Of a stretch of DNA of 64,000 nt, positions 35,589-64,000 are shown one piece after another. Position numbers and translations under genes: made by a program. Position 1 is the stretch's first letter, and the number at the start of each line of letters is the position of its first letter. The notes beneath the pieces are model-generated. The model did not search any database. It was not told the DNA's origin and saw nothing but the letters and a program-made list of their open reading frames with translations. The DNA is from Closterium sp. NIES-65 (taxonomy: Eukaryota; Streptophyta; Zygnematophyceae; Desmidiales; Closteriaceae). Location of the stretch: contig CANXME010002154.1 in the NCBI GenBank assembly GCA_948144175.1, forward strand, positions 1 to 64,000. Reading direction: 5' to 3'.

Positions 35589-38500
35589 TCACTGCGGCTG
35601 CGACTCATCTGCTTGCGCTGCAGATGCCATCCACGGATGAGCTGCACGGAAAAGAACATGCGTACATCAGAACATGGCATGGCACATGCAGAGCACTGGG
35701 AATCACTGCGAGGGAGCACAGCACAGTTTGCAGGACAAGGTGCAGGAAAAGGGGCAGGGGGCTTACCAAGAACGCCAGCGGGGGTGATGCGGAGGTTGGG
35801 ATCCCGTGTGAGCATGCGGCGGATGAGGTCCTGCACGAGGTGGGAGCGCTTGCCCCACACCTCGGGCTTGAAGCGCAGGCGGCAGTCCAGGATGGCCTGC
35901 ATGATGCCGTCCTCCGAGCGCGCCCAGAAGGGCGGCACTCCTGATAACAGCACGTACAGCACTACTCCTGCACTCCACACGTCCGCCGGTGGGCCGTAGC
36001 TGCCCTCGATGACCTCCGGCGCCATGTAGTAGTGCGACCCCACAAACTCCGTCAGCGGCCGCGCTGCAAGAGGGGGGAGGGGAGGGGAGTGGAGGGGAGT
36101 GGAGGGGAGTGGAGGGGAGGGGAGGGGGGCACACCATGCATGGGTCAGGGGAGGGTTATTGAGGCGCCTGAAACATCACCCCTCGATGACCTCTGGCGCC
36201 ATGTAGTAGTGCGACCCCACAAACTCTGTCAGCGGCCGCGCTGCCAGGGGGGCATCATGCGTGGGTGGGGTGGGGAGGGTGATGTGAGGCGAGAGAAAGA
36301 CAAGCAGATGCATGCGCGGGAGATACAGGTGTATCCATGAAGGTTATGTGAGGGGTTGGGGAAGGGAGGGAAAACAAGAGGTATGACAGGGACCAGGGAG
36401 AGCAGAAGTGCAGCGGTGTAATTGAGAGAAGAGCAAGCACATGTTCACTGTGATTAACCCCATGGCTCACAAGGCTCGTAGAAAATCGGAGGTACAAAAG
36501 GGATTGGCGAAACGAGGAGGGTGGCGGTGCAAACAAGCACGGGGAAGGCAGCATGGCTCACAAGGCTTGTAGAAGGCAGCAATGCCAAAGTCGATGACTT
36601 TGACATCGGTGTCGCTGTGCTGCGACACAAGCAGGATGTTCTCGGGCTTGACGTCGCGGTGCACCACCCCCATGGCGTGGCAGTGCCTCAGCACGTCCAC
36701 CAGCGTGCGCAGCACTGCTGCCGCCTCGCCCTCCTCGTACACTCGCTTCGCCTTGAGGCGGTCGAACAGCTCCCCGCCCTCACACAGCTCCATCACCAGA
36801 TGCACCTCCTGGTGGAGGGGGGGGAAGATGGAGGGGGAGAAGAGACGGGGGGGGAGGAGAGATGGTGGGACGGGGGAAGACAGGAGGGGACGGGGGAAGA
36901 CAGGAGGGGACGGGGGAAGACAGGAGGGGACGGGGGAAGACAGGAGGGGACGGGGGAAGACAGGAGGGGACGGGGGAAGACAGGAGGGGGCGGGGGAAGA
37001 CAGGAGGGGACGGGGGAGACAGGGTGGGGCGTTTGAGATGGAGAGAAACGGGGAGACATGGAGGTTGGCAAGTTAGAAGGGGGGAACAGGGGAGACGGAG
37101 GGAGATGGGAGAAATGTGGGGAGACAGGGGAAAACGGGGAAGCAGATGGAAGGGTAAAGGGAAGCAGCTCTCCACCCTCACACAACTCCTTCACCACATG
37201 CACCTCCTGGCGCAGGGAAGGAAGGGGATGGGGGGAGACAGGGAGAAAGGGTGACGTGGGCAGGAGAGACGGAGGGAAAAAAAGAGTGGAAGTGGGGGGT
37301 TGGGGTTAGAGAAGCAGCAATGGTCAAGGGGCTGGCAGGGGCCTACGTGCCCACTGGTCAAAGAGCTCCCCGGCAGCACACAGCTCCATCACCACATGCA
37401 CCTCCTGCCCCGTGCACCATGCACATCAGTGCCATGGCGGGGGGGAAAGAGGGGGGTGTTGTGTGGGGGGGGAAGGGGGCGGGGAAGAATGGTAAGAGAG
37501 CGTGGGTTGAGGAGGGAAGAGCAGCATGTGCAGAAAAGAGGGGTGATGAGTGAGGGAGGCAGAGTGTGAGGGAGTGGGGGGAGCAGAGGGGGACAAAGAA
37601 TCAGGGGGGCTGCAGGAGATGGCTGAGCGAGGGTGTTTTTGAGGTGCCAGAAAAATCATGGGCGAGCACGAGAGCATGCGCTAACGGGGCGAGTGGGGCA
37701 CCTTGGGGTCTTCAAAGGCAGCAGCGAGGCGGGCGACATTGGGGTGGTCCTTGAGCTGCTCCAGTATGGCCACCTCCCTCCTTATGTCCGCCGCATCCGC
37801 CTTCGACTGCCCCATGCCACGTGCGGTGGCGGGTGGTGGGTGCATGGGGGCCACGCACGGGGATAATAAAAAAACCAGTGAAAAATATATGAATGGGTTG
37901 CGAGCCTCTACGTCAAAGGGCGAGATTCTGCTGCTGAGATGCACGCGGAACAGTGAGAGGAATGAAGAGGTGGGAGGGGAAAGAGAAACCACGAGGGCAG
38001 GATTGGCATGAAGAGGACTCACCTTGAGGCACGTCTTGCTGATGGACTTGCACGCCAGGCGCTCTCCAGTTGCCCGGTGTGTCACCACGCGGATGACACC
38101 GAACTGCCCGCTGCCCACCTGCTGGCCCCCGTCCACGTCATACTCCCCACGCACGTCCGAGAACCCCCTCCCCAGCACGTCCGCCTGCCCGCCCTGCAGC
38201 AGCCTCAGCCGCGCCCGTGTGATGCGGTCGCCCAGACCCCGCATGCCCTTGGCTGCCTTGCTCAGCAGCCCCGCCTTGCCCTTGCCCCCTGCTGCTGCTG
38301 CTGCTCCACTCTGCTCTCCGCTGCTATGGTGCGCACTGACTGCCTGGGCCGCCACAGGAATGCTTGAATCCTCCTCGCTCTCAGCGTCTGTCACTCCCTC
38401 CTCCCCTCCCACCTCCTCAGCCTCCTCCTCCTCTTCCTCCTCCTCTCCATCCTCTTCTTCCTCCTCTTCTTCCTCCTCTTCCTCCTCTCCCTCACCACCC

Positions 38501-38856
38501 TTCCCAGCAGCGCGCCGCCGCTCCTTACCAGCAGCACTCAGAACAGCTCGCCGGGCGCGCGACAGGCGGCTGGGCGTCACACTGTCCTCTCTGCTCGCCT
38601 TCGACGGCGTCACCGCCTCCTCCTTGCCCACCTTCCCTTCCTCCTCCCCCCGCCTCTCCTCCCCACCGCCCTCATTGCCCCCTCTCCTCCGTGCATCCCC
38701 CCTCCAACCGGCTGTGCCCACGCCAGCAGTACCAGCCGGGCGAGCAGCAGAGGCGGAGGCAGCAAGAGCAGCAGCAGAGGGCACAGCGAGGTCCAGCGAG
38801 CTGGCTGTAGAGGACAGCCTCACTGCTCTGTTGCCTCCTGCACTCACCCCATCCAC

Positions 38857-38944
<88 letters not shown>

Positions 38945-41900
38945 CCATGGCTGCCCATGGCCTTGCCCATGGGACGGGCGGAGGAGCGGAAGTTGTCACT
39001 CGCCATCTTGCGCAGTGTCCTCCCTGCCACCCTGCCGCCTCCCCTGCTGCTCCCTGCCCCTGCTGCACCTGTTGCCCCTGCTGCCCCTGCTACTGCTGGT
39101 GCTGCCCCTGCTGCTCCTGCTGCTGCTGCCCCAGCTGCTCCTCCTCCTCCTCCTCCTCCTGCTGCTGCTGCTGCTGCTGCTGCCCCTGCTGCTGCTGCCC
39201 CTGCTGCTCCTCCTCCTCCTGCTGCTTCTCCAGCTGCTCTTGCTCCCCTTGCTGCTGCTTCCCCTCCTCCTGCTGCCCCTACGTCCACTCCCTTCTCTGT
39301 GGTTCCCCCTGCTGCTGTTCCCCTCATCGCTTTCACCCTTGCAGCTGACCTCCCTGTTATAGATCCACTTGCTGCTGTCCCACTTGCTGCTGTCCCACTT
39401 GCTGCTGTCCCACTTGCTGCTGTCCCACTTGCTGCTGTCCCAAATGCCACTGCTGCTGCTGCCTCTGCCCACCCACCGTCCCCTCCACTCCCCTCTCTTA
39501 CTCCTCCACTCCCCTCTCTTACTCCTCCACTCCCCTCTCTTACTCCTCCACTCCCCTCTCTTACTCCTCCACTCCCCTCTCTTACTCCTCCACTTCCCTC
39601 TCTTCCTCCTCCACTCCCCTCTCTCCCTCCTCCACTCCCCTCTCTCCCTTTTCCACTACCCCCTCTTCTTCCTCTGCTACCATCTCTCCCTCCTCCACTC
39701 ACCTCTCTTGCTCCTCCACTCCCCTCTCTTGCACCTCCATTCCCCTCTCTCCCTCCTCCGCTCCCCTCTCTCCCACCTCCGCTCTGTTCCCGCTCACCAT
39801 CACTCCTCAACATCCCCTTTTCCCACCCGCCTCTCACCCCGACCCCCACCGCCGCGCCCCTAAGCCTGGCAGCGCTGCTGCTGGCGCTGCGGGCAAGCTC
39901 ATGCCGGGTGCTGCCCGTGCCGGGCACAGCACCAGCTGCGGCAGGGCAGGAGGGCGCCCCATGCACGTCAGGCGCAGGCAGGGCAGAGAGGGCAGGCGCG
40001 TTCAGGGAGAGGCCGAGGGAGCGCGCGTTCAGAGTGGCGGCACGATGGAAGCCCCTGCTGCTGCTCGCACTACCACCAGCAGTGGCGCTGGTGGAAAAGG
40101 TGGTGGTGGTGGGTAGGGTGCTAGTGGTGGTGCTGGTGGTGGTGAAGGAGGTGCTGGTGAGCATTCTGCCAGTGAGCGTGGCACTGCGGGCTGTGATGGC
40201 ACTGGACGAGCTGCTCACGCTCAGCCTCCTGCTGCTGCTGCTGCTGCTGCTCACCCCGCCGTTGCTACCAGCACCGCTGCTGCACATGCCGCTGCTGCTC
40301 GTGCCACTGCTGCCACCACCTGTGGTGCTGGCACCGCTGCTGCTGGTGGAGGCAGGGGGAGTGGCGCGGCTGCTGAAGCTGCGCGAGTCAAATAGAGCAG
40401 CAGAGGGAGGCGTGCGCAGTGTGCTGCGAGCTGCTGTCGTGTGCGCCCTCGCCAATGGATACGCTCTCACTGCCTTCTCCTGCAACCCACTCCCACTCAC
40501 CACCGCTGCCGCTGCAGATGCAGAATTAGCAGTGCCAGCAGCAGTGGCAAGAGCGGGTTCAGCAGCAGCAGCGGCGGCTGTGGCAGCGGCTATGGCACTT
40601 TTCATCTTGAGCTGCTTACCTTGCACGGCCTGCTCCTGCCACGTGCCAACAGGAGGAGCCACGAGCTGCTGGTGCAGAGACATGCTGCCATGGCGCCGCA
40701 GCGCAGCACCCGCAGGTGCACCTGCTCTCATCCCACCGCCCACAGCACCACTCACAGCACCACTCACACCCGACCCACCGCGGGTGAGGCCCCCCTCTCC
40801 TCCCAGCCCAGACCGCCCGCTCGCACCGCCTCCTCCTGCCCGCCTGCCCGCCCCACCACCTCTTGCACCTGCACCTGCTGCTGCACTCCCCCCACCTGCT
40901 TCTGCGCCCCCACTGTCCCCTTGGGGAGCCGCCCACGCGGGTACATCCGCCTCCGCACTCGAACATGCTGGGATGCCCCCGCCAACCCTCCCTCCTCCTG
41001 TGCCCATGCCCACCATACCCACGCCCATGCCCATGCTTGCACCCATGCTCGTGCCGGCGCCCATGCTTGCATGGAAGGCTGCTCGCCGCAGGTCCATGGA
41101 TCCCCCCACGCCGCTGCCCAGCCTTGGCGTATCCGAGTGCACTCCTGCCCCCGTCCGCCCGCCGCCACCGCTTTGCACCTCGCTCCACCGCGCTGTGAGG
41201 CGAAGCAGGCGCTCAGAGGTATCAGAGTTGCGAGCGGCAGGGAGGCCCATGCCCAGGAACATGGCGGCTGATGCAGTGTCACTGGCAGGAGGCACGGATT
41301 GGCCGGGGTGCATGGCAAGTGAGTGTGCAGACGCACTTTCTGCAGCTGCGGCAGCAGCAGAAGTAGAAGCAGCGCGTGGGAATGCGGGGCGGCCGGAGGA
41401 GGAGGATGTGCGAGAAATGGCCATAGATCGAGAGCCTGCTCCCGCTCCCACGCCCACGCCCACGCCCACGCCCACGCCCACGCCCACGGCCGTGCCGGTG
41501 CTTACACCGGTGCCCATGGCAACCCTCCCGGCAGAAGCGTCAGGGGGCGGAGTGGCGTGCGGCGAGGGCACAAGGTGCAGGTCGGCGGCGGACATGGACA
41601 TGCTCTTCACCATGGCTCGCGCCCCCCTCCTGCCGCCCCCCACTGCTGCCCCCCCTGCTGCTCCGCCCCCTGCACTCCCTGCTGCGCCGTGCCGGGCTGC
41701 CAGCAGGCGCTGCTCCGTGAGGGACAGCACAGGCGGCGTCAGCGGCATCGCCTCACATGCACCCCCCCCACCAGCAACCCCACCAGCAGCAGCAACCCCA
41801 CCAGCAACCCCACCAGCAACCCCAGCAGCAGCAGCAACCCCAGTGAATGGCATGGGCCGTACTGCAAGTTCCGCCGCACTGCCGCTGCCCACGGCAGCAA

Positions 41901-44900
41901 GCAGCGTGACCGGCGCCCCGATGGCTGCTGACTCGTCCCACGCGCGCCCACCCCTCCCCTCCCCCACACGCGCGTGCCACGGCCGGCTTGTCACCACCTC
42001 CCCTCGCCGCCCCCTCACCCCGCCTGCCCCACCCACCCCGCCCCCACCACCCACTGCACCCACCTCCACCTCGCCCTCCTGTGCGCTGCCCCCTCTGCTG
42101 CCACTCCCATTCTCTGCCTCCCCCTGCACTGCCTGCCCATGCTGCCACCCCTGCCCCTCCCTCTCCCTCTGCTGCTGCTGTTGCGGCTGCTGCGCCTGCT
42201 GTTGCAGTTGCTCTGTCTGCTGCTGCATCCGTGGTTGTGCCAACCCCTTGAAGCCAGATGAGCCCAATCCTGCCATGCCCCCTGGCCCTTCCTCTCCTAG
42301 ACCCTCCACTTGTGCCGCTTCTCTCCCCTCTCTCTCCCTTCCAACCACACCACTTTCACTGCTCTCCCCGCCCCTTCTACCTCCCTCTCGCCCTTTCCGC
42401 CCATCCTCTAAGCCTCTCTGCTGCCGCACACTCCCTCCCTCCACCATCCCATCACTCGCCCGGCCACTCCTCTCGCCCTCATCACCAGCCTCCCCTCGCC
42501 TCACCCCCCCCTCGCCCGCACCCTTCCTACCCCGCCTTGCACGTGCACGCCCCGCTTTTTCTTCCCCTGACCCGCCCCCTCCCTCCGCCCCTTCACCCGC
42601 AGCACCCCCTCCTCCCTCCGCCACACCCCTCGGCGTCCCCCCACCCTCCACGGCCCCTCGTGGTGTGCGGGAGGTGCCTGTGGGAGTGGCAGGATTCGAC
42701 CGGTTCCTCTCTCTCCCGCGGGTCGCTCTGCCCCTGCCGCTCTCCCTCTCCCGCTCCCTCTCCCACTGCATGTCCCGTGCTGCAGCCCTCTGTGCCGCTG
42801 TCCACCTCTCCCCACCCATCTGCACGCCCCTGCCCCTCCCCGACTCACTACCGGGGGAAGGGGCAGAAGCGAGGGCCACAGCGGCACCTGTGTGTGCCTC
42901 GGGTCTCGCCACCCCTGCTGCTGCTGCTCCCCCTTCCCCACCCGAACTTCTGGCGGGTCCCTCTCGCGCCTTTCTTCCCCTGCCATTGAACCCACTGCTC
43001 TCACCTGCACTCACCCCTCCTCCCCCCCTCTCGCCTTCTCTGCCTTCCTCCCCCGCCATCTGCTCTGGACGCGCCCTCGCCCCCCCTTGCCTCCCCAGCC
43101 CACCACTTGCGCCCTCCCCTTCACTCAGCCCTTTGGAGCCCTGTCCCCCCCCCCCACCACCACCACTCCCCCCACCGCCCTCCCCAGCCCCTGCAGCTGG
43201 CCCCCAAGGCGCATGACCGCGCCCCTCCATGGCGCTCAGGGCGCGAGTTAACCGCCGCCCCGCCCCTCCCTTTGCATGCCCCTCCGCGCCGCCCGCCCTG
43301 CTGCCAGCGACCATCTCCGCCCTGCCCCCTGCAGCGCCCGCCCCCGCCCCCTCCCCCTCCCCCTCCCCCTCCCCCTCCCCCTCCCCACCTCGTTCGCTGC
43401 TATCCCCTGCACTGCTGGTGCCGCCGCTGCTGCCAGTGGTGGCAGCGCCAGTGCCGGTGGCAGTGGGAGCAGCAGCAGAGCGCAGCTCACACGCACTGGC
43501 CTGCCCGAAACTCACACTCGATCGCAGCCGTCCGTTGCCGCCCGCTCGTGGCGCAAGCTCAGTGCTGCTGCCTGTGCTGCTCTGCCCGCCTGCACGGACC
43601 TTCCTGGCCTCTGCAACAGCCCCAACCACTCCATTCCCCTCACCCCCTCTCTCACTGCCACCATGATTATTTGAATTCCAATGCGAGCTCGCTTCTGCTC
43701 CTGCTGCTCCTGCTGCTGCTGCTGGTGCCACGTCAGCGCTGACTGGACCGTGCAGCGGTTGCTGGCGCAGGGAACTGTGTGCCCCTTCAGGGATGCCTCG
43801 TCCGCCCGCCGCCCCTCCATCCACTCCCTCCATCGCCCCCCCTGCTTCTGCGCGCATCACACCTCTTTCCATTCCCATTTGCGCTCGCTCCACGCCCATC
43901 ACACCCTTCGCCCGCCCCATGCCACTCGCCTTGCTCCGCCCCATCGCTCTCACCCCACCCCGCCCCCCTCCTCCGCCCCTCTCCCCCGCCCTCGCGGACC
44001 CCCTTGTCTCACCCTCGCTGCCCCCCCCTGCTTCCGCGCATGCTGCCGCGTGCAGGGGCGCGGGGGGACCCCCACGCGGGGGGGACTGCGAGAGGCCGCG
44101 GGGGGAGCGGTCCTCTTGGGGCGAGGGGGGCTGGGGGCGGATAGGGGGGGAGGGGGAGGAGGTGGCGGAGCGGGACGAGGAGGAACGCGCGTCAGGCGGC
44201 GCAGCGGTGGAGGGCGGAGGAAAGGGGGAGGGCGAGGGGGAGCGGGCGAGGGCGGTGTGGGGGCGGCGGGGCAGGGGCATGGCTGGTGCGTGGGGAGGGG
44301 AGGCGGAGCCCTTGGTGCCGTGCAGGCGCTGCACTGCGTCCACTTGCAGACTCGCCTGCCGCACATGCCGCCGCTCCCTCCTCTGCTGCTCCTGCCCCGC
44401 CCCACTCTGCCCTCCTGCGCTGCCCTGCTGCTGCCCCATCCCCTGCTGCCCCATCCCCTGCTGTCCCACCCCTTGCTGCCCCACGCCCTGCTGCCCCACG
44501 CCCTGCTGCCCCACGCCCTGCTGCCCCACGCCCTGCTGCCCCACGCCCTGCTGCCCCACGCCCTGCTGCCCCACGCCCTGCTGAGCGTGTGTCGGGCGGG
44601 CCTTCCAGCTCCCCCCATCGCCCACGCCCGTCTCGCTGCCTGCTGCATCGCTGCCCTCACCGCCTCGGCTGTTGCCGGCCCCTGCCACAACCAGCCTGCC
44701 GCCAGCAGTCACAGGCCTCTGCGCCCCGCCTCCCCCTCCCATCCCCGCGCCCATGCGCGCGCCCGCCTGCCCCACCCCGAGCCCTCGTCTCATCCCCGCT
44801 CTACCACTGCCCGGCCTCGCCCCAACCCGCATCTGCTCCCCCGCTTCCCCCCGTCTTCCCCCCTCCCCCACCATTTCGCCCGGCCACGTCCCCTCGGCCG

Positions 44901-45921
44901 CACCCGCCCCCCCCTCGCCGCTGTTGCTGAGTGGCGCAGCAGGCTTGGCGGAATGGACTGTTTGCGGGGCCGTGGGAAATCTGCGCGTCAGCGGCGCCGC
45001 TGCTGCTGCTTGCGCATCTGCTGTGTGTGCGGCGTCCGCTGCTGCAGTGCCTGGTCCTGGAACCGCGCCTGCACTGGCGGCGCCCGCGTTGACGGCGTCG
45101 CCACTGCTGGCCACTCTCGCGCGCCGGGGCCTACTGCTACCGCGCGCCACGCCCCCTTCCCTCGCCTCCTCTCCGCTTCCCCTCGCGCCCTCTCCCCCTG
45201 CCCTCACCCTCTCCGCTCCCCCTTTTTCCCCGCCTCCGCCGGCTCCATCGCGCACGACAGGCGCGCGGGCGCCCATCAGCGCGCCATCGCGCCCCGGACT
45301 GCCCTCCCGCAGCTCCGCCCCTACCCCCGCGCGCCCATCCGCGCGCCCCTCCGCGCCCGGTCTGCGTCGCACAGCATGCGGGGGCAGAGGCGAGATGGGC
45401 CGCGGAGGGGCAGCCGTCGCGCTCCTGTGGGCGGACGGCGGGCGCGCGGGGGCGGGCGAGGCATGGGCGGAAGAGGGTTCGGAGTGAGCGGGGGAGGGGG
45501 AGCTGGAGCGACTGCGAGAGAAGGCGGCGCTATCGCTTTGGCCGATACGAGAGTCGCCATTGGGGATGCGAGAGGGGCGAGTGCCGGGAGCAGGGTAATA
45601 CGGCTTTAAGAAGCAATCATCTTCCATCGCCATCGCGCTATCGTCGCCACGCGCCCCTGTCGGCTCCGCTTCCCCGCGCCCTGCTAAGACTCGTTTATGC
45701 CCTGGCGATACAGCTTTGCGGCCTGACGTCATCGAGTTGGGGTGTGACGTCATGGCGTCTGACGTCATCATCGCGCGATTGCGGTCAAAAAGGGAGGAAG
45801 GAGCGGCGGAGAAGTGCGGCGGGGAAGGGACGGCGTTGACTCGCGCGTCCAACATCCCGCTGCCGCCGCTGCTGCTCATACTATCGCGCCCTCCTTCCCC
45901 CACCCATTCTTGCCCCAACAT
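35589..45921 (-). CDS. CDPK-like Ser/Thr protein kinase with giant N-terminus
   Basis: Five exons on the minus strand, all phases consistent: 45921-38023, 37806-37702, 36808-36562, 36063-35767 and 35641-35589 (2,866 residues). The ATG at 45921 follows an in-frame TAG, and introns are GT-AG. Residues about 1-2,590 are Gly/Ala/Ser-rich with repeats (GVGQQ, GM, EGSGG, poly-Glu). The kinase domain (about 2,594-2,852) has the GSGQFG glycine loop, ACKS Lys2625, HRDVKPEN with Asp2720, DFG Asp2741 and APE, so it should be active. The closest style is plant CDPK/CaMK-group kinases ([16 protein letters not shown]). The protein ends 13 residues after HPW, with no autoinhibitory segment or EF-hands, so calcium binding is not expected in this product. 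Introns 2 and 3 contain partial copies of the neighbouring exon ends. The N-terminal exon is supported by its unbroken frame and by repeats in multiples of three; no transcript is available. Confidence 0.85.
36179..36247 (-). repeat. Intronic copy of kinase exon 4 start (acceptor echo)
   Basis: About 68 bp nearly identical to the start of exon 4 (36063 downwards): a CAG acceptor, then the same [20 protein letters not shown] reading. It ends right after the ATCGAGGGG position. It lies in intron 3, about 0.1 kb upstream of the real exon. Confidence 0.9.
36461..36486 (-). repeat. Intronic copy of kinase exon 3 end (donor echo)
   Basis: TTCTACGAGCCTTGTGAGCC on the minus strand repeats the exon 3 end and 5' splice site (true site at 36562/36561) with one change. 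It sits about 90 bp into intron 3. Confidence 0.85.
36871..37018. repeat. 20-bp tandem repeat in kinase intron 2
   Basis: About 7.4 copies of CGGGGGAAGACAGGAGGGGA. It lies between exon 3 and the two exon 3 echoes. On the minus strand it is a long pyrimidine-rich tract. Confidence 0.9.
37164..37211 (-). repeat. Intronic copy of kinase exon 3 start (echo 1)
   Basis: This repeats the first about 45 bp of exon 3 ([14 protein letters not shown], here [14 protein letters not shown]) including the AG before it, inside intron 2. The copy then runs into unrelated sequence. Confidence 0.85.
37356..37409 (-). repeat. Intronic copy of kinase exon 3 start (echo 2)
   Basis: A second copy of the exon 3 start in intron 2, reading [17 protein letters not shown] before it diverges. 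Its acceptor position reads GCAGG rather than CCAGG. Confidence 0.85.
38849..38945 (-). repeat. Hexanucleotide GGGCAT array coding Gly-Met
   Basis: About 16 copies of a 6-bp unit in kinase exon 1 give a Gly-Met alternating stretch. Two further hexamer arrays in the same exon encode Gly-Val (41,446-41,493) and Gly-Glu (43,345-43,388). All units are multiples of three and keep the 2,633-codon exon open. Confidence 0.85.
44430..44584 (-). repeat. 15-bp array coding GVGQQ in the kinase N-terminus
   Basis: About ten tandem copies of a 15-bp unit (CAGGGCGTGGGGCAG on the minus strand) encode QGVGQ repeats. Unit length preserves the frame. Confidence 0.85.
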
Positions 45922-46517
45922 TCGCCCCTTCGTGCCCTAACGAGCATCGCTTGCTCCTCCGCGCCTCTAACGCCGCGCATGCTAGGAGTCGCTATAAATT
46001 AAATATAATTGGCGACAACCATTAGTCTTCTATGTAACTACGTCCTCGGCGCCGCTTTACGTCTGGAAAAGCCTACACCTGTGCTGTGTGGCTGGCAGGC
46101 AGCCATGTGGTGGGGTTGGTGGTGGGCGGGGAAGAGTGTACAGGCAGTGTGAGTGCAGCAGGTGTATTTATGCGCTACAGTGCAGCGCTGCACAGCTGTC
46201 TGTCGTCTCGTCGCCTTGCCCTGCTTGCTTTCCCTGCTCGGCCTTCCGTACAAGCACTATTGTCCCTCGATCGCTTCACAATACACTTCGATAAGCACGG
46301 TGGTTCAAAGCATTCGAAGCACGATAAGTGTAGAACATAAGTACCAACTTACCTTCATTATGAGAATGCTGAGAAAAAATGTGTTAATCATGTGTAGGAT
46401 TAGCTCAGCAACAAATACAATGAGTGTCTCACAGGATTGCCTCAGTGGATTGGTGTGACACAAGACAGAGAGAAAGTAAAATGAGAGCAGAGATTGATTA
46501 TCACCTTAAAACCTATG
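45922..46517. promoter_or_regulatory. 5' flank of the kinase gene
   Basis: Upstream of the kinase ATG the sequence turns AT-rich. On the minus strand a CCAAT followed by TATATTTAATTTATAG lies at about 45,994-46,012, roughly 75-90 bp before the ATG, a plausible core promoter. The rest up to the J target site (46518-46522) shows no gene I can support. Confidence 0.45.
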
Positions 46518-46522
46518 ATTTG

Positions 46523-53430: not shown

Positions 53431-53643
53431 CCTTGCTTGTACTCTTACATATATATAGACCTGCTCTTGCTTGTTTAGCCTTATATATATATATATATGT
53501 GTACTCCTGCATGTGAACTGGCCTTGTGGCCTTGACCTTGTGCTTTGACTGTGTGGTGACGTTGTGATCCACCCTGAGCTTTGTCTGCTTTGCCTGACTG
53601 GTCTTGTGACCCCTTGTTCTCCCCCACTTTGCCTATGGGGGTG

Positions 53644-53764
53644 TGTCAAATTATAATATTGTGTAGGCTATAGTGGGTTAGCCCATATGGGGTACACATT
53701 TCTAGGGTTGCATATTTGTATCACTTCCATTCCTTAGTCTTTCATTCTCGTTCACATCTTCTCA
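53644..53764 (+). repeat. 3' LTR of element G
   Basis: A 121-bp LTR preceded by CCTATGGGGGTG and followed by GTTCA. Confidence 0.9.
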
Positions 53765-54706
53765 GTTCATCGAAGCGCCAACTTTACCGCCAGCTTCGAC
53801 TCCAACTCCGACATGTACCGACGTTCACCCGGACACCGCGCTAGCGAAGAAATCTGGCATGCACGAATGGGACACCCAAGCAACATAATGTTAAACAACA
53901 CAATAAGAGCAGGAGTGCTCGACAAAGATTCACTCCTACTACATGACGGGGGAGAACTCCAACGAGCAAAAGGGACATGCTTCACATGTCATGAAGCCGA
54001 CTTACCGCATCAACCGTTTGTCCCTCACCACAACCCGAGTGCACTAGCATACGCACCGCTTGAAAAGGTGTACAACGACATCCTGTACAACCGCGTACCA
54101 GGACAAGGAGCTTACAACTACGCCATCACCTTCATCGACGCCGCCACCCGATACGTTTGGCACATGAACCTTCCGAGTCGCGACATGGCCTTCGAAGCCT
54201 TCGTCGCCTGGCTTCCAGCAGCAGAACGAGAGTCTGGAGTGAAACTAAAGGGTTTTCAGTGAGATGGAGGCGGAGAATACACCTCACAATGCTTCAAGGA
54301 CTACCTGGCAGAGAAGGGAATCAAGAGGCTCATCTCCCTTCCTTACGCCCATCAACAGCAGGGTGTAGCAGAAAGGATGAACAGGACCCTCCAGAACACC
54401 ATGCGCAAGCTGCTACGTGGCATGCGGCTACCCAACCACCAGTGGCCCGAAGCAATGGACCACGCCGTCATGCTGCACAGCTTGCTCTCGTCATCATCGC
54501 TCTCGAACAACGCATCACCGTATCTGCTGTGGACAAGAAAATTGGGCAGCTCAAAAATGTTACGAGTCTTCGGCTGCATGGTACAGTACCGACCCCCATC
54601 TGCACGAGCCGGCCGATTCTCCTAACGCGCACAGTGGGGACTACACCTGGGCATCGAAAAGAATCACAACGCATGGAAGATTTTCGACGTCCTCACCAAG
54701 GAAACA

Positions 54707-56761
54707 GTGGCAGCACGTGATGTGATTTTCTACGAACGACTCACTCTCGACTCCTACCTAGCCAACGTGGAAGAACAACGTGATCTCACCAGTGGACTTC
54801 GTGGAGACAGAGCCATCGCTTCCGCAGCGGACGAAGCTGACTTGGACAAGCAGAACGTGGACGCAGCCTCGGAGGAAGCCGGACCTCTCCCGTACTGCTC
54901 CGTTGATGTCCCAATGGATGACGAAAACCCTCGCGAAAGCGTCAACGCCGAAGTATTTTACCACTTCGCCGACAACGGTTACGTTACATCTGCAGAAGTC
55001 AACACCAACGAAGCAGAACGCATAGGGCCCAACTTCATACCCGACCCAGAAGCAGGTGACGAAGCAGCTTATCCCGCGGATACCACACTCCCCCGCTACA
55101 CACAGAGTGGCCTCCAGATACTTGGCCTCGTCACCGCACTCCACGGCACTGTGATTCCTAAGGAGCCTGCGACAGTTCAGCAGGCTCTGGGAGGGGAGCA
55201 CAGGGAAAAGTGGCGCGAAGCCATGGACAGGGAATTGAAGGCACTAGAGGAGCGCAACACTTGGAAAGTTGTTCCTATCGGAGTGGCACGAAACAAGACT
55301 ATACTCACCGGGAAGTGGGTCTTCCGAGTGAAAACAGAAGCAGACGGCACCATCGACAAATTCAAAGCACGCTGGGTTGTACGTGGTTTTGACCAGGAAC
55401 ACGGACGCAACTTCACCGAGACATTCGCCCCGGTCAGCCGACACACCTCACTGCAAATCCTCCTCGCGATCGCCGCCATGAAGAAGAAGTTGCGACAAAT
55501 CGACGTCGCGAACGCATTTCTCTACGCACCTATCGACGCAGAAATCTTCGTCGAGTTACCGCACGGCTCCAACGGAGAGCCTAACCAAGTCTGTCAGCTG
55601 CTGAAGTCGCTCTACGGGATCAAGCAGGCTCCGAGACTGTGGCAACAATACCTGCACGCTCGCCTCATTCGCATCGGCTTCAAGCAACTACCGCACGATC
55701 GGGGCATGTACCGGCTTACGAAAGGCACCGACTACATCCTGCTAATCGTCTATGTAGACGATCTGCTCTACATCGGCTCGACCGACGGTGTCACAACCTG
55801 GTTCGAAGAGGAGCTGCAGCAAGACCTCACGCTCACGGTCTCATCTACCGTCACACAGTACCTCGGCCTCAACATCCGGGAAGAGGAAGACGCGATCTAC
55901 CTTAGCGCAACGAAATACGCCGATACCATCGCCAAGCGCTTCGCACTCACGCTGACCGCCATCTCCACGCCATACCGCTACACGGCAGGAAATCACAAGG
56001 AAGGCTCCGCTCTACTCAAGCCCGCCGGCATACGCGACTACTAGAGGAAGCTAGGATGCCTCCTCTTCGCAGCTGTCACCTGCCGCCCGGACCTATCGTA
56101 CTCTGCAAGCCAGCTCGCCACCTACCTCAAGAAACCCGAAGCGGAACATTTGGCGGAACTCGACCGCGCTCTTCACTACCTCGTTAGCACTCCGACGATC
56201 GGCCTGACTTATCATAAGAACGGAACGTCAACACCTAAACTAATCGGCTACGTCGACGCCGATCACGCCGGCGACTCCGATAACAGACGCTCGCGCACCG
56301 GCTACATCTATCGCTTCGAACCTATCGGTCCCATCTTCTGGCAGTCGAGTAAGCAGGAACTAATCGCTCTCTCTTCAGCTGAAGCAGAATATATCGCACT
56401 CTGCTCAGCCACCAAGGAAGGACTGTACCTTCGCGAACTCGTGGAGGAAGCCAAGCTAGCACAGTTACCAAACTTTACCCTGTTCTGCGACAACCAGTCG
56501 GCCATTCGCACAGCCAACAAGAGCGGCTTCGCGAACAGGACGAAACGCATTGCCCTGCGATACTTCTTCGTGAAGGACGAGATCGAGAAGGGGAGACTCG
56601 AGGTGTCATACTGCCCCACATCCGAGATGGCAGGTGATTACTTCACCGAGAAGCTAGGAAAACAGAAGTTCGAGTATTGCATGCTGCTGACTGGACAGAA
56701 CCACGTCACCAACAGCGACACTCCAGAAGCGAAGGGGAGTGTTGGAAACAATCAAGCTTAA
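54707..56761 (+). pseudogene. Copia RT-RNase H of element J
   Basis: RT: KWREAMDRELKALEERNTW, TGKWVFRVK, FAPVSRHTSLQILLAIAA, VANAFLYAPI, LYGIKQAPRLW and the catalytic YVDDLLYI at about 55,753. A TAG at 56042-56044 (probably Gln in the parent) separates it from RNase H. RNase H shows YVDADHAGD, SSAEAEYIAL, CDNQSAI and LRYFFVKDEIEKGRL. The frame runs out into the 3' LTR and stops at 56,761. The catalytic motifs of both enzymes look intact. Confidence 0.88.
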
Positions 56762-57908
56762 TCGCCTCTGTCGTGTCGAAACACCAAGGCACAAGCGAAG
56801 CGAAGCATATCGAGCAGGCCCTCAGATTCACTTTTAGGCACGTAAGGGTATCAGGGTCCCTCTGCCCCTAGACCCTGATCGTCAGGGTCGCCTAAAAAAA
56901 AAGCCTGAAAGTTCAGTGTTACTTAAAAAAAAAGTCTGATACATCAGTGTTCCCTACAGAAAAAGGCTGATACTAGTACGGTAGTCTTTATTTTACTAGT
57001 AGTAAAAACACTAGGAAGGAAGCAAACAGCAGAACGGGATGTGAGGCTGGATGGCAGGTAGCACGGCTGGGAGGCGTGGATGCATCAGTGCTTGCCAGCA
57101 CGACCTAGACCGCCAGAATCCTTCGCAGCGCAGCCTGCCAGCATCTCTGTGCTGCAACCTTTTAATTGGTCAAGTCACTTAATGTTGCAAATGTGGCCAA
57201 TGACCGGACCAGGCGCGCCAACTAAGGGGCCATCAGTGTGGGCAAAATTGTCCGATAGTCAACGACAGGCCCTGCTGACACCGCGGGAATCTGATTTTCC
57301 CAGTACTTCAGGTCAAGTACACTCGTACCTAGTAGGATTCGCTTTCAGGGTCAAACTCGTTACAACGTAAAGGCATCAGTGTCACTTCAAAAAAAGTTCA
57401 GAGTCATGTGGCATGTGAAGGCTGAAAAATCAGCCCTAGGAAAAGCTGAACACTGGATTTTTAGGGTAGGTAAAAAAAAACCCTGAAAATCAAGAATTTC
57501 AGGGTAAAATTCATGATATCGTAGGGCCTGATATCGAGGCACCAGCGAGTCAACCCTCGGAGGTTGAAGTAACTGCTGGAGGTTATGCGAAAGTCAAAGG
57601 ACAGCGACCTTTGACCTGACAAGTACAGCGCGGCAGCAAGGACACACAGCTGACTCGCTACAGAGCAGTTGCCCGAGTCGTCACTGTATCGAACCGCAAC
57701 AGCAACAGTAAAGTAGTTATAACCGTACCTCTTCATATTCCTTGTACTCATATATAATCCTGGATCTCTTTGCTTTAATTAATCGACTTTGCCCTCACAT
57801 ACTAGCCCAAGGTGGTTCACAATTCTTCACTAAACGCTTCCGCTATTACATCAGTCCTACCCAGTGTTCACCCCTGCAAAGATCCTAAGGGCTTTTCTCA
57901 GCCCAACA
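56740..57908 (+). repeat. 3' LTR of element J with hAT insertion
   Basis: The LTR starts TGTTGGAAAC and ends CCCAACA just before target copy ATTTG. It is 1,169 bp, of which 724 bp are the hAT element plus its duplicated 8-bp target. A TATATAAT box lies near 57,750. Confidence 0.88.
56815..57530. mobile_element. Non-autonomous hAT-type element in the J LTR
   Basis: A 716-bp insertion with terminal inverted repeats CAGGCCCT / AGGGCCTG and an exact 8-bp target duplication ATATCGAG (56807-56814 and 57531-57538). An 8-bp target and CAG ends are the hAT signature. Subterminal repeats (CAGGGT, GCCTGAAA/GCTGATA, CAGTGTT) on both sides resemble transposase-binding clusters. There is no transposase frame. 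It is younger than J. Confidence 0.9.
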
Positions 57909-57992
57909 ATTTGTAACACCAATAAAATATCCTTCCGATTCAGCAAGCATTGTCAATCTTACTAACTACTACCTAGTCCACACTTTGGCCCA

Positions 57993-60566
57993 TCACAACG
58001 AAGGCACTGCCTCTTGAAGCTTCCTTGCTACTTCCTTCTTCAGAGAAACCCCTTTTTGTTGAAAGCTGTCAGCAAGTTGAGATGCCAGGACATCCTCTCC
58101 TTGGGCAAGCAAAGCACTGCAACAATACCGGTATAATTCACAACCCAATGTGCGATTTTGAATCAGGTTTGGAAGCAATGATGTTAGGTGTGCACCATGC
58201 ACCAGCCACTGCTGAGTTTACAACAAAAAAGTGTAGGATATGTTTACCTGATGACAATGTCTGCGGTGGTGGGTGATGGATGAATTTTCGCCTTCCCCAT
58301 TTGACTATAAGCCGAGAGCAGGAGAGAGTTATCCTTGGCTGACGCAGCATGCTTCTGCAGCGGAGACAACAAGTCAAGGAGAATAGGCCTTCAGGACATT
58401 TGTATGGATATTAAACACATGGCGGACATGAACCCTGGGAAAATTGATGGTATGTCTTCGTATGGTAAGTTTGACTTGAGTATCCATTTGCAATCTCGAT
58501 GGGCTGGACGCGTACCATAATCAGATGTGCAGATGTGGACGCGTACCATAATCAGATGTGCAGATGTGGACGCGTACCATAATCAGATGTGCAGATGTGG
58601 ACGTGTACCATAATCAGATGTGCAGATGTGGACGCGTACCATAATCAGATGCGCAGATGTGGACGCGTACCATAATCAGATGCGCAGATGTGGACGCGTA
58701 CCATAATCAGATGCGCAGATGTGGACGCGTACCATAATCAGATGCGCAGATGTGAACGCGTACCATAATCAGATGCGCAGATGTGGACGCGTACCATAAT
58801 CAGATGCGCAGATGTGGACGCGTACCATAATCAGATGCGCAGATGTGGACGCGTACCATAATCAGATGCACAGATGTGGACGCGTACCATAATCAGATGC
58901 GCAGATGTGGACGCGTACCATAATCAGATGTGCAGATGTGGACGCGTACCATAATCAGATGTGCAGGTGTGGACGCGTACCATAATCAGATGTGCAGATG
59001 TGGACGCGTACCATAATCAGATGCGCAGCTCCCAGCAATGGCGTCAAGCCAAACGGATTGGTTGGGGAAATGGCAACCAAAGCTGCCAGGTGGTGAAGGA
59101 AGGAGTGAAGAAGGAAGGAGTTGAGACGCAGAAATCACGTTGGGATGCCACAACCCATGCTGTGACAGAAAAAAGGATAGCTCAAACCTGAGTCAACGCA
59201 AGCACCATAGGCAGCTGCAAAAAAAGAAGGAAAAGCAATTCTGCAGGTTCAGCACGCAAGTAAAGCTTGTTGTAAAGTTCGAAGCTCCTAGGTCTCAGGC
59301 TCGTGGATTTGAAGCACCTAGGTTTGAAGCTTGCGGTGTTTGGAGCTTGTGGAATGGAAGCCTGTAGCTTGAACTCGCCTTTCTGCAGCCCGCCTGCTCG
59401 GATGCCTTGTGAGTAGACTCAACAGTGAACTTGAGCTCACCTTTATGTGGCACGCCTGCTCGGATGCATGCTCTCACGACGCCCAGCGACACCTCGTCGT
59501 TGAAGTTCGCCGTCTGCTTGCGATAGGCTGCGTTCTGTATCAATGTGTAGCAATAGGTAGGGATATGTAGGCATATGGATGGAAGGGAGCGGACAGATGG
59601 TCAAAGGACGGCGGGAACACACGAAACCATGAAGAACTTGTCAGCTTGTGCATGTAAGCTTGTGCATGTCAGCTTGTGCATGTTCAGCTTGTGCATGACA
59701 TGTCAGCTTGTGCATGTCAGCTTGTGCATGTCAGCTTGTGCATGTCAGCTTGTGCATAGTCCACTTATCTTCTCTCATCTCCCCCTTCTCCCCCCATCAT
59801 CCCACCCTTTCCAACCTTCCTCCCCCCTCCCCCCTTCCCTCCTCCTTCTGTCTAATGACCAAGTGAGCAGCTCTCTCACATCGCCTGAACCAACGTTCCC
59901 TGCGCTCCCTTCTCGCCCGCGTTGCTCCACGAGCGAGATTTCTGTCGATTCAATTGTCGCCTTAATCGTGTTTCAAGTCGACTCAGAACACGAGATTTGA
60001 GTCGATTCAATAGTCGCCTGAACCACCAATCCCTGCGCTCTCTTTCTCCCCTCGCTGTTCCACGAGCGCTCAATCGTCTGTCCCCTCGTTCCCGCGCAGG
60101 TGATTTTTGAGTCGACTCAAACGCCACCTCTTTCCCCCCCCGTTGCTCCACGAGCGCTCTTTCCCCCTCGTCCCCGCGCACCTCTTTCCCCCTCGTCCCC
60201 GCGCACCTCAAGCCTCGTTCGCGCCAGCATCTGCAAGGAAGCTTCGGCCTCCTCCGCCGTCTGGCACTCTTGAAAAACTCCCAGAAGGTTCTTTTTCGCT
60301 GGCGCTACGTGCAGCCGGAGCGATCGACTGCACGCCTCCGCGTGGCTTCGCCAGCCTCCCGCCTCCTCCGCTGCTACCGCGGATTCTACTGACGGATCCA
60401 CGGCAGCCGTCGATCTTGGTGATTGGTCAGCAGCTGGCGACGCCGATGCGGAAAAGAATCGGTCTCTTGAAACAATATCGGATGCGGCCCATCGTGGGGA
60501 TAGAATCGAGAGCGCGGAAACCGAGTTCTGGAGAGCAGGAAACTGTATTCGGATTGTGACGGCCAT
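57993..60566 (-). CDS. Five-exon gene, probable organelle-targeted protein, function unknown
   Basis: Exons (minus strand): 60566-60207, 59534-59441, 59082-59012, 58354-58248 and 58116-57993. All have GT-AG introns with matching phases 0, 1, 0, 2, and give 251 residues ending at TGA 57993. The ATG at 60566 opens a stretch rich in Arg, Ser and Ala and almost free of acidic residues for about 45 residues (MAVTIRIQFPALQNSVS...), typical of a mitochondrial or plastid transit peptide. The rest is mostly helical in character: NLLGVFQECQTAEEAEASLQML, VVRACIRAGVPHKAL, GLTPLLGAAHLIMKH, ADSFQQKGVSLKKEVARKL. This could be a PPR- or TPR-like helical repeat protein, but no diagnostic motif is certain and I do not recognise the family. 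Donor sites of exons 1, 2 and 3 each have copies downstream. It is divergent from the GT14 gene. Confidence 0.8.
58506..59016 (-). repeat. 31-bp minisatellite of about 17 units carrying a 5' splice site
   Basis: The units share the core CGTACCATAATCAGAT on the plus strand. On the minus strand each reads CATCTGATTATG followed by GTACGCGTCCACAT, which is the end of exon 3 (last 12 bases of the HLIM codons) plus the start of intron 3. The unit nearest the exon is the real junction (59012/59011), and the others extend into the intron. Only scattered single-base differences separate units. Confidence 0.93.
59367..59403 (-). repeat. Intronic copy of exon 2 donor junction
   Basis: GCATCCGAGCAGGCG...AAAG followed by GCGAGTTCAAGC repeats the exon 2 end and splice site (true: AAAG / GTGAGCTCAAGT at 59441/59440), about 65 bp downstream. 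The copy has GC instead of GT at the donor position. Confidence 0.8.
59637..59757. repeat. 14-bp tandem repeat in intron 1
   Basis: About eight copies of GTCAGCTTGTGCAT with small length variations inside intron 1 of the 57,993-60,566 gene. Confidence 0.85.
60158..60207 (-). repeat. Tandem copy of exon 1 donor junction
   Basis: Two adjacent copies of a 25-bp unit (60158-60182 and 60183-60207), each containing the GGTGCGCGGGG donor sequence of exon 1. Use of the inner copy would add 25 nt and shift the frame. Confidence 0.85.
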
Positions 60567-61327
60567 TGGAACCAAGGTATGTGCTAGTAGGATTGAAGGT
60601 TGTGAACCTAGGATGCTAGCGATGCTGAAGCGTGGAAAGATACCTAATCAGGGCGGGTTGTGAAACTGTGTTCGTTGCAGGGCGCGGTACATCTCATCTC
60701 AAGGCGGTTTTGGATACGTGATTGGGGGAAGGGGGGATGAAGGCTACCTAGAAACATGCGTCGGTTGTTTTGTTTGTCCACCCTCGATCGATATTCATTA
60801 TTGTTTCAATTGGCGACATTCGTGACATGTAGGTGACTGGTTGTTACAGATTGTTGATGAAACTGGTTTTGTAAGACTACCTTGCCTCGAGTTCATTGCC
60901 TGCGCGACCGTCGTTCTAGTCGACCACTTTCTTCCCGAACATCGTAGCATTTCGCTTGTTCGCGTATCATGTTATCTGCAAGTCTATCAAAGCTCGTCCT
61001 GGCTCGCCAGGAGCTGCCCCCGTCGCGATCAAATAACACCTGTACCGGATCTGCGCTCGTCAGGGAGGGGGGTACCCGCCAAACCCGCGAGGACTTTCAT
61101 ATATCCTAGATTCCTAGGTTATTTTCCGCTGCACCCAATGTCAAGAAGCGGCACATAGTACTGAATAAGGAATAGCTTGTGTTTATACCCTAAATCTGGT
61201 TACTCTAGCACCCCGCTACATTCCTTAGGCGTAGTCTGAGAATTCTCAGATTCTCCTAGGAAAGCTTATAAGACAACTTCCCAATCCAGTAACGCATAGA
61301 GTAACCTCAGACACCCCGCGTGACAGG
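60567..61327. promoter_or_regulatory. Divergent intergenic region
   Basis: These 761 bp separate two genes transcribed away from each other and so hold both promoters. I see no unambiguous TATA box. A plus-strand open frame from about 60,841 starts with a non-ATG codon and has no recognisable content. Confidence 0.5.
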
Positions 61328-63786
61328 ATGAAGGAGGAAGGAAGGCGGAGAAAGAGTCCTTTACCTGCCAGTCATGCCATACACCTGGATCATTCAATCA
61401 GTACCGGTACTGGTGCTAGTACCGGTACTAATACGAGACGTCCCAGTCCGTTTGACATTTACAGCGCGGATAAATCGTTACAAAAATCTTTCCAATTCAG
61501 TGATGATACTAGCCATTCGGGCGCGATCCAGTACGATTCAGCACGATTCGGCTGCGCCAATCATAAGGAGCAGCAGCAAGGCCAATCCTTTGAGATTGCC
61601 ACGTTTCAGAAAGCATCATCCGCATCATCAGCATCCTACTCGAAGTTCTTGAGTTTCTCTGCATTTTCCCGTCTCCTACGGAGAACTCTTAACTTTCTAC
61701 TATTCTCCCTCCTCCTCCTCACGCCCCTATACTACTTCGCGTTTGTCCTAATCTCTCCAAACTGCACGCGAACCCCGATAGTAACCTTTCGCGCGCCGCT
61801 TACATACTCCACTCCTAGTCCATACTGCCGCTTATTCCCGTTCGCGTCGCGATGGAAATACACTGTTTCGGAAGAAAATTCTCGATTTGATGGAATGGAG
61901 GACTTCGTGTTCGACCCGAGTTCAATACCCGCTGAGATCAAATTGTCGGGTGATCCGTATAGCAGTGGGGAACACGGGAAGATGGCGTTTTTGTTCCTCA
62001 CGAGATCGACCATCCCGCTTGCTCCGTTATGGGAAAGATTCTTTAAGGTAAGCTGTGGAATGAGCTCCATCGTTAATTTGTTTACGTTGTTCTACTGTCG
62101 AATTTGTCCCATTGTTACGTTATCATAACCAGCATCACCAGTATCACAAATCATTTCCCCTATGCCTAAAACGGTCCACACGTCACACTCCATATGCCGT
62201 TCCCCTCCCTTCTCATCTTATAATGCTGACACTTACTGCTGATGTGCACTGCTGACTGCTGTTGATGTGAACTGCTGACTGCTGCTGTCGTGTCACTGCC
62301 ACGTGTCTTGCTGACGTGGCAGGGTCACGAGCACCGCTACTCCATCTACGTGCACAGCTCCGACCCGTCCTTTCAAATCACTGCTGATAACACCCCCTCG
62401 CCCATCTTCCTAGGCCGCCAAGTGCCCAGTGGCGAGGTATTTATCACATGGTGCATATTATGCTCTACCACACATCACTAAATCTTGCTGTACTGAACTG
62501 TGCTGTACTGTGTTGTACTGTCTTTCCATTGAGAGCTCTGCTGTATTGAATCTTACTGAATCGTACTGTACTGAATCGAACTGTAATCCCCTCTCCCGTC
62601 CCCCTTCCCCCCCCAAAAATCACCCCTTTAGATGCTGTGGGGTGACATCACTATGGTGGACGCGGAGTGAAGGCTTGCTCTCTACACCCCTCTCCACCCC
62701 TGCCAACCCCCACCCGCCCATTCACCCCTTCTGGTACTGTGGGGCGACATTACCATTGTGGACGCGGAGCAAATGCTGCTGAAGATTCTTTGCCCTCTCC
62801 ACCCCTCTCCACCCCGCTCCACCCCTCTGAACCTCTTATTGATTCTACTACCTCTATTGGCCCCTTTCAGGTGCCGTTGGGCGACATCACCATTGTGGAT
62901 GCAGAGCGACGACTGCTGGCGATGATTTGCCCCTCCCCACCCGTCTCCACCCGTCTCCACCCCTCTCCACCCATCTCCACCCCTCTCCACCCCTCCCAAC
63001 CTCTTATTACCTTCCCGTCAGGTCCTGTGGGGCGACATCACCATGGTGGACGCGGAGCGAAGGCTGGTGGAAATCTCCCTGTTGGACCCGGATAACCTCT
63101 TCTTCACCCTTGTGTCTGAGAGGTGCGGTTGGAAGGAGTGGAGAGGGGTGTGGGGAGGTGTGCAGGTGTGGGGCACGATGTGCGTGCGTGGGTGTGGAGG
63201 GTTGGGGAGCGGTGTGAAGTGGTATGAATGAGTGTGTGAAAGGCTGCTTGGGACCGCCCCGTTGGACCCGGATAACCTCTTTTTCGTGCTCATCTCTGAG
63301 TGGTGTGGTGCGGTTGAAAGGTGTGGAGAGAAGTGTGGAGAGGTGCGGTCGGAGAGCTGTTTCTGGGTGTGAGAGGGAGTGAAAGGGTGTGGGGCGGAGG
63401 GCGGACAGGTGAGTGCACGGTGGGGTGAGGTGTGATGAGGCGGTGAGGCGAGGTGTGATGTGGCGTTTGCCTTCCCCATTCAATCTTGCCGTTTCCCCTT
63501 CTCCCTTCTCCTCCGCTTCTCTTCCCCTTGCCTTCCCTTTCCCTTCCCCTCTTCCCCTTATCGTCCCCTTATCTTCCCTTTCTCTTCCCCTCTTCCCCTT
63601 CTCTTCCCCTTCTCTTCCCCTTCTCTTCCCCTTCTCTTCCCCTTCGTTGTCCCTATTCGTCCCCCTCTTTAAACTGCGTTGCCTCCCGCTTGTTTTTCCT
63701 TGTGTCCCCACCAGCTGCATACCCCTGTGGTCCTTCCAATATATCTATAATTACGTTGCCACCACGTCAGTCAGCTTCATTGAAAG
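61328..63786 (+). CDS. GT14 (DUF266) glycosyltransferase, 5' part, runs off window
   Basis: Exons 61328-62047, 62323-62436, 63022-63122 and 63715-63786 have consistent phases (0, 0, 2, 2) and GT-AG introns. Further exons lie beyond the window. The protein is type II: a cytosolic Ser-rich N-terminus, a membrane segment at about residues 121-143 (LNFLLFSLLLLTPLYYFAFVL) and a lumenal domain. The lumenal part reads KMAFLFLTRSTIPLAPLWERFFK, GHEHRYSIYVHSSDPSF, FLGRQVPSGE, VLWGDITMVDAERRLVE, LLDPDNLFFTLVSES, CIPLWSFQYIYNYV, matching plant core-2/I-branching beta-1,6-N-acetylglucosaminyltransferase-like proteins (GT14), probably Golgi enzymes that modify proteoglycans or polysaccharides. Substrate is unknown. 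Introns 2-4 contain repeated copies of the exon 3 and exon 4 junctions. Confidence 0.9.
62632..62677 (+). repeat. GT14 exon 3 start, echo 1
   Basis: TTTAG acceptor followed by ATGCTGTGGGGTGACATCAC, reading MLWGDITMVDAE, then TGA where the true exon has CGA. If spliced in, it would terminate the protein. Confidence 0.85.
62734..62785 (+). repeat. GT14 exon 3 start, echo 2
   Basis: Reads VLWGDITIVDAEQMLLK, but lacks an AG immediately upstream (TCTG instead), so it is probably not usable as an acceptor. Confidence 0.85.
62871..62930 (+). repeat. GT14 exon 3 start, echo 3
   Basis: Has a good acceptor (CCCCTTTCAG) and reads VPLGDITIVDAERRLLAMI before diverging into CCACCC-rich sequence. It is the most convincing candidate for an alternative 5' half of exon 3. 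Confidence 0.88.
63257..63316 (+). repeat. GT14 exon 3 end, donor-side echo
   Basis: Reads PLDPDNLFFVLISEW and continues into GTGTGGTGCGGTTG, mirroring the true exon end (LLDPDNLFFTLVSE, donor GTGCGGTTGG), about 130 bp downstream in intron 3. Confidence 0.88.
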
Positions 63787-63835
63787 GTAAGCTTAAGAGA
63801 CTTACTCAGCGCCACCACCGCTAAAACATGTAGCC

Positions 63836-63900
63836 ATGCCACCGTAACCGTCACGTCAGCTTTGTCGAGAGGTGAATTGAAAGAGCTTACTTCACTCAAG
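63836..63900 (+). repeat. GT14 exon 4 end, donor-side echo
   Basis: CACGTCAGCTTTGTCGAGAG followed by GTGAATTGAAAGAGCTTACT repeats the exon 4 end (AGTCAGCTTCATTGAAAG / GTAAGC...) about 105 bp downstream. It retains a usable GT donor in the same frame. Confidence 0.8.
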
Positions 63901-64000
63901 ACGCCATCCCTCTTAGAAATGGGCAAAACATGCTGCCATTGCTTTAAACTGCATTCGCCGTACTATCAGGTTTGACTGCCCTCTCAACATTGGCTTTAAT

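What the first reader, a model, noticed from the sequence alone, without database searches (positions are those of the whole stretch)
36000..63900. Splice-junction echoes: partial tandem copies of exon ends with their splice sites in all three host genes
Every host gene in the window has intronic copies that begin or end at its own exon-intron junctions: kinase exon 3 start (2 copies), exon 3 end (1), exon 4 start (1); unknown gene exon 1 end (1), exon 2 end (1), exon 3 end (about 16); GT14 exon 3 start (3), exon 3 end (1), exon 4 end (1). Copies at exon starts lie upstream and copies at exon ends lie downstream, so the duplicated segment spans the splice site, and much of each exon is left out. 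Ten junctions in about 28 kb is too consistent for chance. It suggests a local process (replication slippage or break repair at pyrimidine-rich intron ends, or an R-loop-linked mechanism) that keeps seeding decoy splice sites. It could be a source of new exons or a way to tune splicing.
Basis: seen in the sequence. Interest (0 to 1): 0.87.

Follow-up and report, generated by a model that had tools for sequence, protein, structure and literature searches.

The report
Tandem duplications straddling exon-intron junctions
The introns of three plant-like genes carry many small tandem DNA duplications, and some of them happen to include a piece of the neighbouring exon and its splice site; the echoes are real, but they look like ordinary duplications rather than a process aimed at splice sites.

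Summary
The echoes are real. At 7 of 24 junctions the exon end has a copy in the adjoining intron that no shuffle matches. An eighth (kinase exon 3 end) is supported once intron bases are included. The ninth claimed junction (unknown gene, exon 1 end) is an essentially intronic 25-bp repeat. The finder lists nine junctions, not ten. All five donor echoes and two of three acceptor families continue past the splice site into intron; kinase exon 3 start could not be shown. So these are tandem duplications whose unit contains a junction. The upstream/downstream rule follows from geometry, because the exon must stay intact. Local duplications cover 40% of intron bases anyway; 7 of 24 junctions are covered against 7.7 by rotation. 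Counting families instead gives a nominal excess (7 of 10, expected 3.0, P 0.009), weaker when exon anchoring is removed (4 of 7, P 0.13). Using echo sites would shift the frame or meet a stop in all 26 cases. Codon-position differences fit a neutral copy of a conserved exon. A potato gene is a published precedent. The genome-wide test could not be run.

The parts
36562..36808 (-). Kinase exon 3 (parent of start and end echoes)
   Evidence: frame and splice sites
37161..37206 (-). Echo A of kinase exon 3 start, acceptor AG kept; intron-side homology not shown (p 0.27)
37356..37404 (-). Echo B of kinase exon 3 start, 43/49 identical, acceptor AG kept; intron-side homology not shown (anchored p 0.20)
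36379..36483 (-). Echo of kinase exon 3 end (13 exon nt) plus donor and intron
36180..36298 (-). Echo of kinase exon 4 start (59/61 exon columns identical) plus acceptor and intron; period 177; the parent's intron side carries an extra simple-repeat stretch
60157..60209 (-). 25-bp repeat, 2.1 copies, at the unknown gene's exon 1 donor; essentially intronic
59346..59405 (-). Echo of unknown gene exon 2 end; head-to-tail 62-bp duplication spanning the donor (GT changed to GC in the copy)
58505..59028 (-). 31-bp minisatellite, 17 units; unit 1 contains the exon 3 end and donor, 16 further units all keep GT
62620..63070 (+). Tandem array over the GT14 exon 3 acceptor: echoes starting at 62632, 62734, 62871 and the real exon at 63022
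63240..63397 (+). Echo of GT14 exon 3 end plus donor and intron (parent 63060-63212)
63837..63921 (+). Echo of GT14 exon 4 end plus donor and intron (parent 63757-63830)
36867..37023 (-). 20-bp tandem array wholly inside kinase intron 2 (example of intron-only duplication)
59881..60180 (-). Intron-only local duplications in unknown gene intron 1 (59881-59935/60014-60068; 60040-60098/60128-60180)
63484..63658 (+). Intron-only duplication in GT14 intron 3 (63484-63554/63583-63658)

Best explanation
These introns accumulate small head-to-tail tandem duplications (periods of about 30 to 400 bp for the echoes), probably by replication slippage, template switching or end-joining repair in GC-rich, low-complexity DNA (inferred). 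The break points fall at arbitrary places. When a unit happens to span a splice junction, the exon stays intact only if the partial exon copy lies on the intron side: upstream for exon starts, downstream for exon ends. The copy then decays neutrally while the parent exon is held by purifying selection. The exon part therefore stays recognisable longer than the intron part, and the pair looks like an echo that ends at the splice site. Shown: same-strand neighbouring copies, continuation past the splice site in seven of eight families, no enrichment at junctions by base coverage. Inferred: the mutational mechanism, arbitrary break points, neutrality, and correct splicing at the parent sites.
For: Except at kinase e3 start, pairs lie next to each other and the alignments nearly fill the period, e.g. 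the whole 62 bp in unknown exon 2 (59467-59406 against 59405-59346). Anchored extension into the intron is significant for KIN e3 end, UNK e2 end, UNK e3 end, GT e3 end and GT c3 (p 0.005-0.010) and for GT c2 and GT e4 end with corrected registers (p 0.005 and 0.010). For KIN e4 start the anchored test gives p 0.075; allowing long gaps over a simple-repeat stretch in the parent gives p 0.02. Duplicated sequence covers 2066/5185 intron bases, 268/1716 exon bases and 7 of 24 junctions; rotation null mean 7.70, P(>=obs) 0.73. With TRF arrays and GT e4 end added it is 8 of 24 against 9.49. Differences between six exon-start echoes and their parents by codon position are 8, 7 and 19. That fits a neutral copy of a constrained exon, where half are expected at position 3 (P 0.30); it fits worse two neutral copies (P 0.006) or a coding copy (P 5e-5 if 85% are assumed there) (the three GT14 echoes are related, so these P values are rough).
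Against: Counting families rather than bases, 7 of 10 with units of 60 bp or more span a junction against 3.0 simulated (P 0.009), and 8 of all 20 against 4.5 (P 0.050). Four of those seven would still pass the threshold on their intron parts alone, leaving 4 of 7, P 0.13; the four include KIN e3 start A, whose match may be composition only (p 0.27). The anchoring argument is weak in one respect: in simulation it matters only from about 15% divergence per copy, while codon positions 1 and 2 of six echoes show 15 differences in 194 sites; it needs introns to diverge faster than that. KIN e3 start A and B and GT c1 show no anchored intron-side homology (p 0.27, 0.20, 0.17). The families were partly chosen by hand, and only three genes were examined.
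Confidence: 0.78

Rival explanations
1. A junction-targeted duplication process: replication or transcription trouble at pyrimidine-rich intron ends or R-loops repeatedly duplicates the splice junction, more often than other intron sequence.
For: Nominal excess of junction-spanning families (7 of 10 against 3.0, P 0.009; 8 of 20 against 4.5, P 0.050). Seven tested intron stretches hold 0-79% duplicated bases; five intergenic or other non-genic stretches hold 0% (four) or 13% (one).
Against: Base-level rotation test shows no enrichment; the excess weakens to P 0.13 after exon anchoring is removed. The exon part of the unit varies, about 13 to 63 nt. Donor echoes occur as well as acceptor echoes, in GT14 exon 3 in purine-rich surroundings (read from the sequence).
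Confidence: 0.1
2. Functional decoy splice sites or alternative exons that tune expression, for instance by producing transcripts that are degraded.
For: Splice dinucleotides are kept in 8 of 10 non-array echoes and 16 of 16 array units. Every use would disturb the frame, as a poison site would.
Against: Keeping two bases is expected at modest divergence (inference). 18 of 26 extensions are not multiples of three, and all 8 that are meet a stop. The codon-position pattern is not that of a coding copy. No RNA data were available.
Confidence: 0.07
3. Intron gain by duplication of an exonic AGGT segment (Rogers model): the introns themselves came from duplicated exons.
For: Also puts exon-end copies downstream and exon-start copies upstream; documented as a class (PMC3443670, passages).
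Against: That model predicts copies that stop at the splice site at the far end of the intron; here seven of eight families carry the splice site and following intron sequence.
Confidence: 0.03
4. Assembly duplication artefact.
For: The 31-bp array and the kinase exon 4 echo (59/61 exon columns) are similar enough to be suspected.
Against: 11 of 12 parent-copy alignments are under 90% identical counting gaps (the exception is the 31-bp array), so they are not one sequence assembled twice.
Confidence: 0.02

Closest known systems
Potato RdRp gene: tandem duplication across an intron-exon boundary (PMC4974935; abstract and passages seen)
   Same: A tandem duplication contains the 3' end of an intron and the 5' end of the next exon, so the acceptor and part of the exon are present twice.
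   Different: In potato a new intron arose and a cryptic donor was activated; here the gene models keep the coding exons unchanged and no new intron is shown. Here there are also donor-side cases and multi-copy arrays.
[quoted passage not shown] PMC3443670, and PMC2891723, passages seen)
   Same: Short tandem duplications in genes that multiply splice-like sites.
   Different: There an exonic AGGT segment is duplicated; here the unit spans an existing junction.
Intronic minisatellite (general class, from own knowledge)
   Same: 31-bp head-to-tail array, 17 units, near-identical.
   Different: The first unit includes 15 nt of the exon and its donor, so the donor is repeated 16 times.

Membership tests
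Tandem duplication spanning a splice junction | Copy near the parent, same orientation | tested here: met
   antisense 0 of 24, wrong side 0 of 18
Tandem duplication spanning a splice junction | Homology continues across the splice site into intron | tested here: met
   met for 7 of 8 families: KIN e3 end, UNK e2 end, UNK e3 end, GT e3 end, GT e3 start (c2, c3; not c1) and GT e4 end by the anchored test; KIN e4 start with long gaps only (p 0.02; anchored p 0.075); not shown for KIN e3 start
Junction-targeted duplication process | Junctions duplicated more often than other gene sequence | tested here: inconclusive
   not enriched by bases; nominal excess by families, P 0.13 after correction
Rogers-type intron gain | Copies end at the splice site, from an exonic AGGT segment | tested here: not met
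   copies run past the splice site in 7 of 8 families; kinase e3 start undecided
Alternative or mutually exclusive exons | Frame-compatible inclusion | tested here: not met
   as extensions of the parent exon, 0 of 26 echo sites keep an open, in-frame product; inclusion as separate cassette exons was not tested
Decoy splice sites in use | RNA evidence of use | not testable with these tools
   no transcript data

The most novel reading that the evidence does not exclude
In this lineage transcribed introns are hot spots for tandem duplication, and the process favours splice junctions, so that new donor and acceptor copies are seeded continually beside working ones.
Probability: 0.1. Interest if true: 0.7.

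Novelty: new member of a known kind. Interest (0 to 1): 0.27.

Why it matters
It shows how ordinary tandem duplication, filtered by the need to keep exons intact, can produce a pattern that looks directed at splice sites. If a genome-wide test found a true excess at junctions, it would bear on how new introns and alternative splice sites arise. The 16-fold repeat of one donor next to the presumed authentic one is a natural test of how a spliceosome picks among near-identical sites.

Tried and rejected
Chance similarity against shuffled introns was rejected for 7 of 24 junctions. My 'intron100 local' test is not valid for unknown e2 end, unknown e3 end and GT e4 end, and overlaps by 9 nt for kinase e3 end, because the parent's 100-nt flank includes part of the copy's own flank; I used the anchored test there. 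Three echo registers were off by 1 to 2 bases (KIN e3 A, GT c2, GT e4 end); they were corrected (frames, codon positions; anchored tests). Rfam found nothing at gathering scores in 35400-64000. Pfam found no family for the unknown gene. A search for relatives of the GT14 fragment in viral contigs found none. A paper search for an algal genome by name (10 of 2,233 listed) gave nothing usable. The list of families for one search was drawn up by hand.

Full report
What was checked. I rebuilt the three host genes from splice signals and reading frame. The kinase (Pfam PF00069; best matches among solved structures are calcium-dependent and calmodulin-type kinases, best 60 of 2646 shown) and the unknown gene (no Pfam match) lie on the minus strand. 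The GT14 gene (PF02485) lies on the plus strand and is cut by the window end. Together they have 24 splice junctions inside the window.

The echoes are real. With up to 60 nt of exon against the adjoining intron and 200 dinucleotide shuffles, 7 of 24 junctions beat every shuffle. Kinase exon 3 end is borderline on its 13 exon nt (p 0.055), but the match runs on for 10 identical intron bases. The unknown gene's exon 1 end is a 25-bp repeat that reaches only 3 nt into the exon. So eight junctions hold, plus one that is essentially intronic; the finding lists nine and calls them ten. Controls at p<=0.01 were near the chance level: wrong side 0 of 18, antisense 0 of 24, other genes' introns 3 of 192, against 6 of 24 on the expected side in the same run.

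They are tandem duplications. Except at kinase exon 3 start, alignments between parent and copy nearly fill the distance between them. The clearest is unknown exon 2 end, where 59467-59406 is followed at once by its copy 59405-59346. Homology passes the splice site into the intron at kinase e3 end, unknown e2 end and e3 end, GT14 e3 end, GT14 e4 end (p 0.010) and two of three GT14 e3 start copies. At kinase e4 start the anchored test gives p 0.075; the intron part matches once a simple-repeat stretch in the parent is bridged (p 0.02). At kinase e3 start A and B and at GT14 c1 I could not show it (p 0.27, 0.20 and 0.17).

The side rule is geometry. If a unit spanning an acceptor is duplicated, only the second copy is continuous with the rest of the exon, so the partial copy must lie upstream. 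For a donor the reverse holds. No special process is needed for the direction to be perfect.

Are junctions special? Local tandem duplications cover 2066 of 5185 intron bases and 268 of 1716 exon bases in the tested gene bodies (only 100 nt of each first exon included). They cover 7 of 24 junctions; rotating the duplication map against the gene models gives 7.70 on average (P of at least the observed 0.73). With TRF arrays and GT14 e4 end added it is 8 of 24 against 9.49. Counting duplication families gives a different picture: 7 of 10 families with units of 60 bp or more span a junction against 3.0 in simulation (P 0.009), and 8 of all 20 against 4.5 (P 0.050). Detection favours families with an exon part: of the 7, 4 would have been found by their intron part alone, and 4 of 7 gives P 0.13. 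Against this correction, simulated detection differs little between the two kinds below about 15% divergence per copy, and codon positions 1 and 2 of six echoes show 15 differences in 194 sites. The sample cannot exclude a mild preference, but it gives no strong reason to assume one.

Are the copies functional? 8 of 10 non-array echoes and all 16 array copies keep the splice dinucleotide. If an echo site replaced the real one, 18 of 26 would shift the frame and the other 8 would meet a stop. Six exon-start echoes differ from their parents by 8, 7 and 19 bases at codon positions 1, 2 and 3. A neutral copy of a conserved exon predicts about half at position 3, which fits. No transcript data were available, so use of the echo sites is open.

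What is known. A potato RdRp gene has a tandem duplication across an intron-exon boundary (PMC4974935, abstract and passages seen). Tandem duplication is a recognised route to new introns (PMC3443670, passages; PMC2891723, passages). PMC2891723 cites, for 15 Drosophila lines, 1901 duplications of which 624 held some exon sequence but no whole gene, so such events are common. My searches for a description of junction-spanning echoes listed the potato case; among the titles and abstract starts shown I saw no paper on the general pattern. Two of these lists were capped (15 of 40, 15 of 134), and of the listed papers I opened only the three named here.

What may be worth following. Seven intron stretches tested (two contain a small exon; the last intron of each gene was not tested alone) hold 0-79% duplicated bases; five intergenic or other non-genic stretches hold 0% in four and 13% in one. 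TRF arrays of period 10 or more cover 26% of intron bases, 3% of 3097 intergenic bases and 21% of the kinase's long first exon, and coverage rises with GC content (correlation 0.57 over 128 bins; introns 55% GC, intergenic 47%). The sample is small, and GC may explain part of it.

Limits. Everything rests on three genes.

Noticed in passing
48827-53764: A Copia-type element with LTRs starting at 48827 and 53644 and a 5-bp target duplication GTTCA sits inside another Copia-like element (about 46501-56760) (gene content read from the sequence, not searched).
   Followed up: partly
38023-45936: The kinase's first exon lies in an open frame of about 7.9 kb, low in complexity and rich in tandem repeats, upstream of a calcium-dependent-type kinase domain; a Pfam scan of the last 361 residues lists no EF hand.
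   Followed up: no
58505-59028: Seventeen near-identical 31-bp units repeat the same splice donor; only the first keeps the reading frame open.
   Followed up: partly
34990-35588, 45937-46500, 56820-57992, 60567-61327, 15900-18000: Intergenic or other non-genic stretches show 0% (four) or 13% (56820-57992) local duplication, against 0-79% in seven tested intron stretches.
   Followed up: partly
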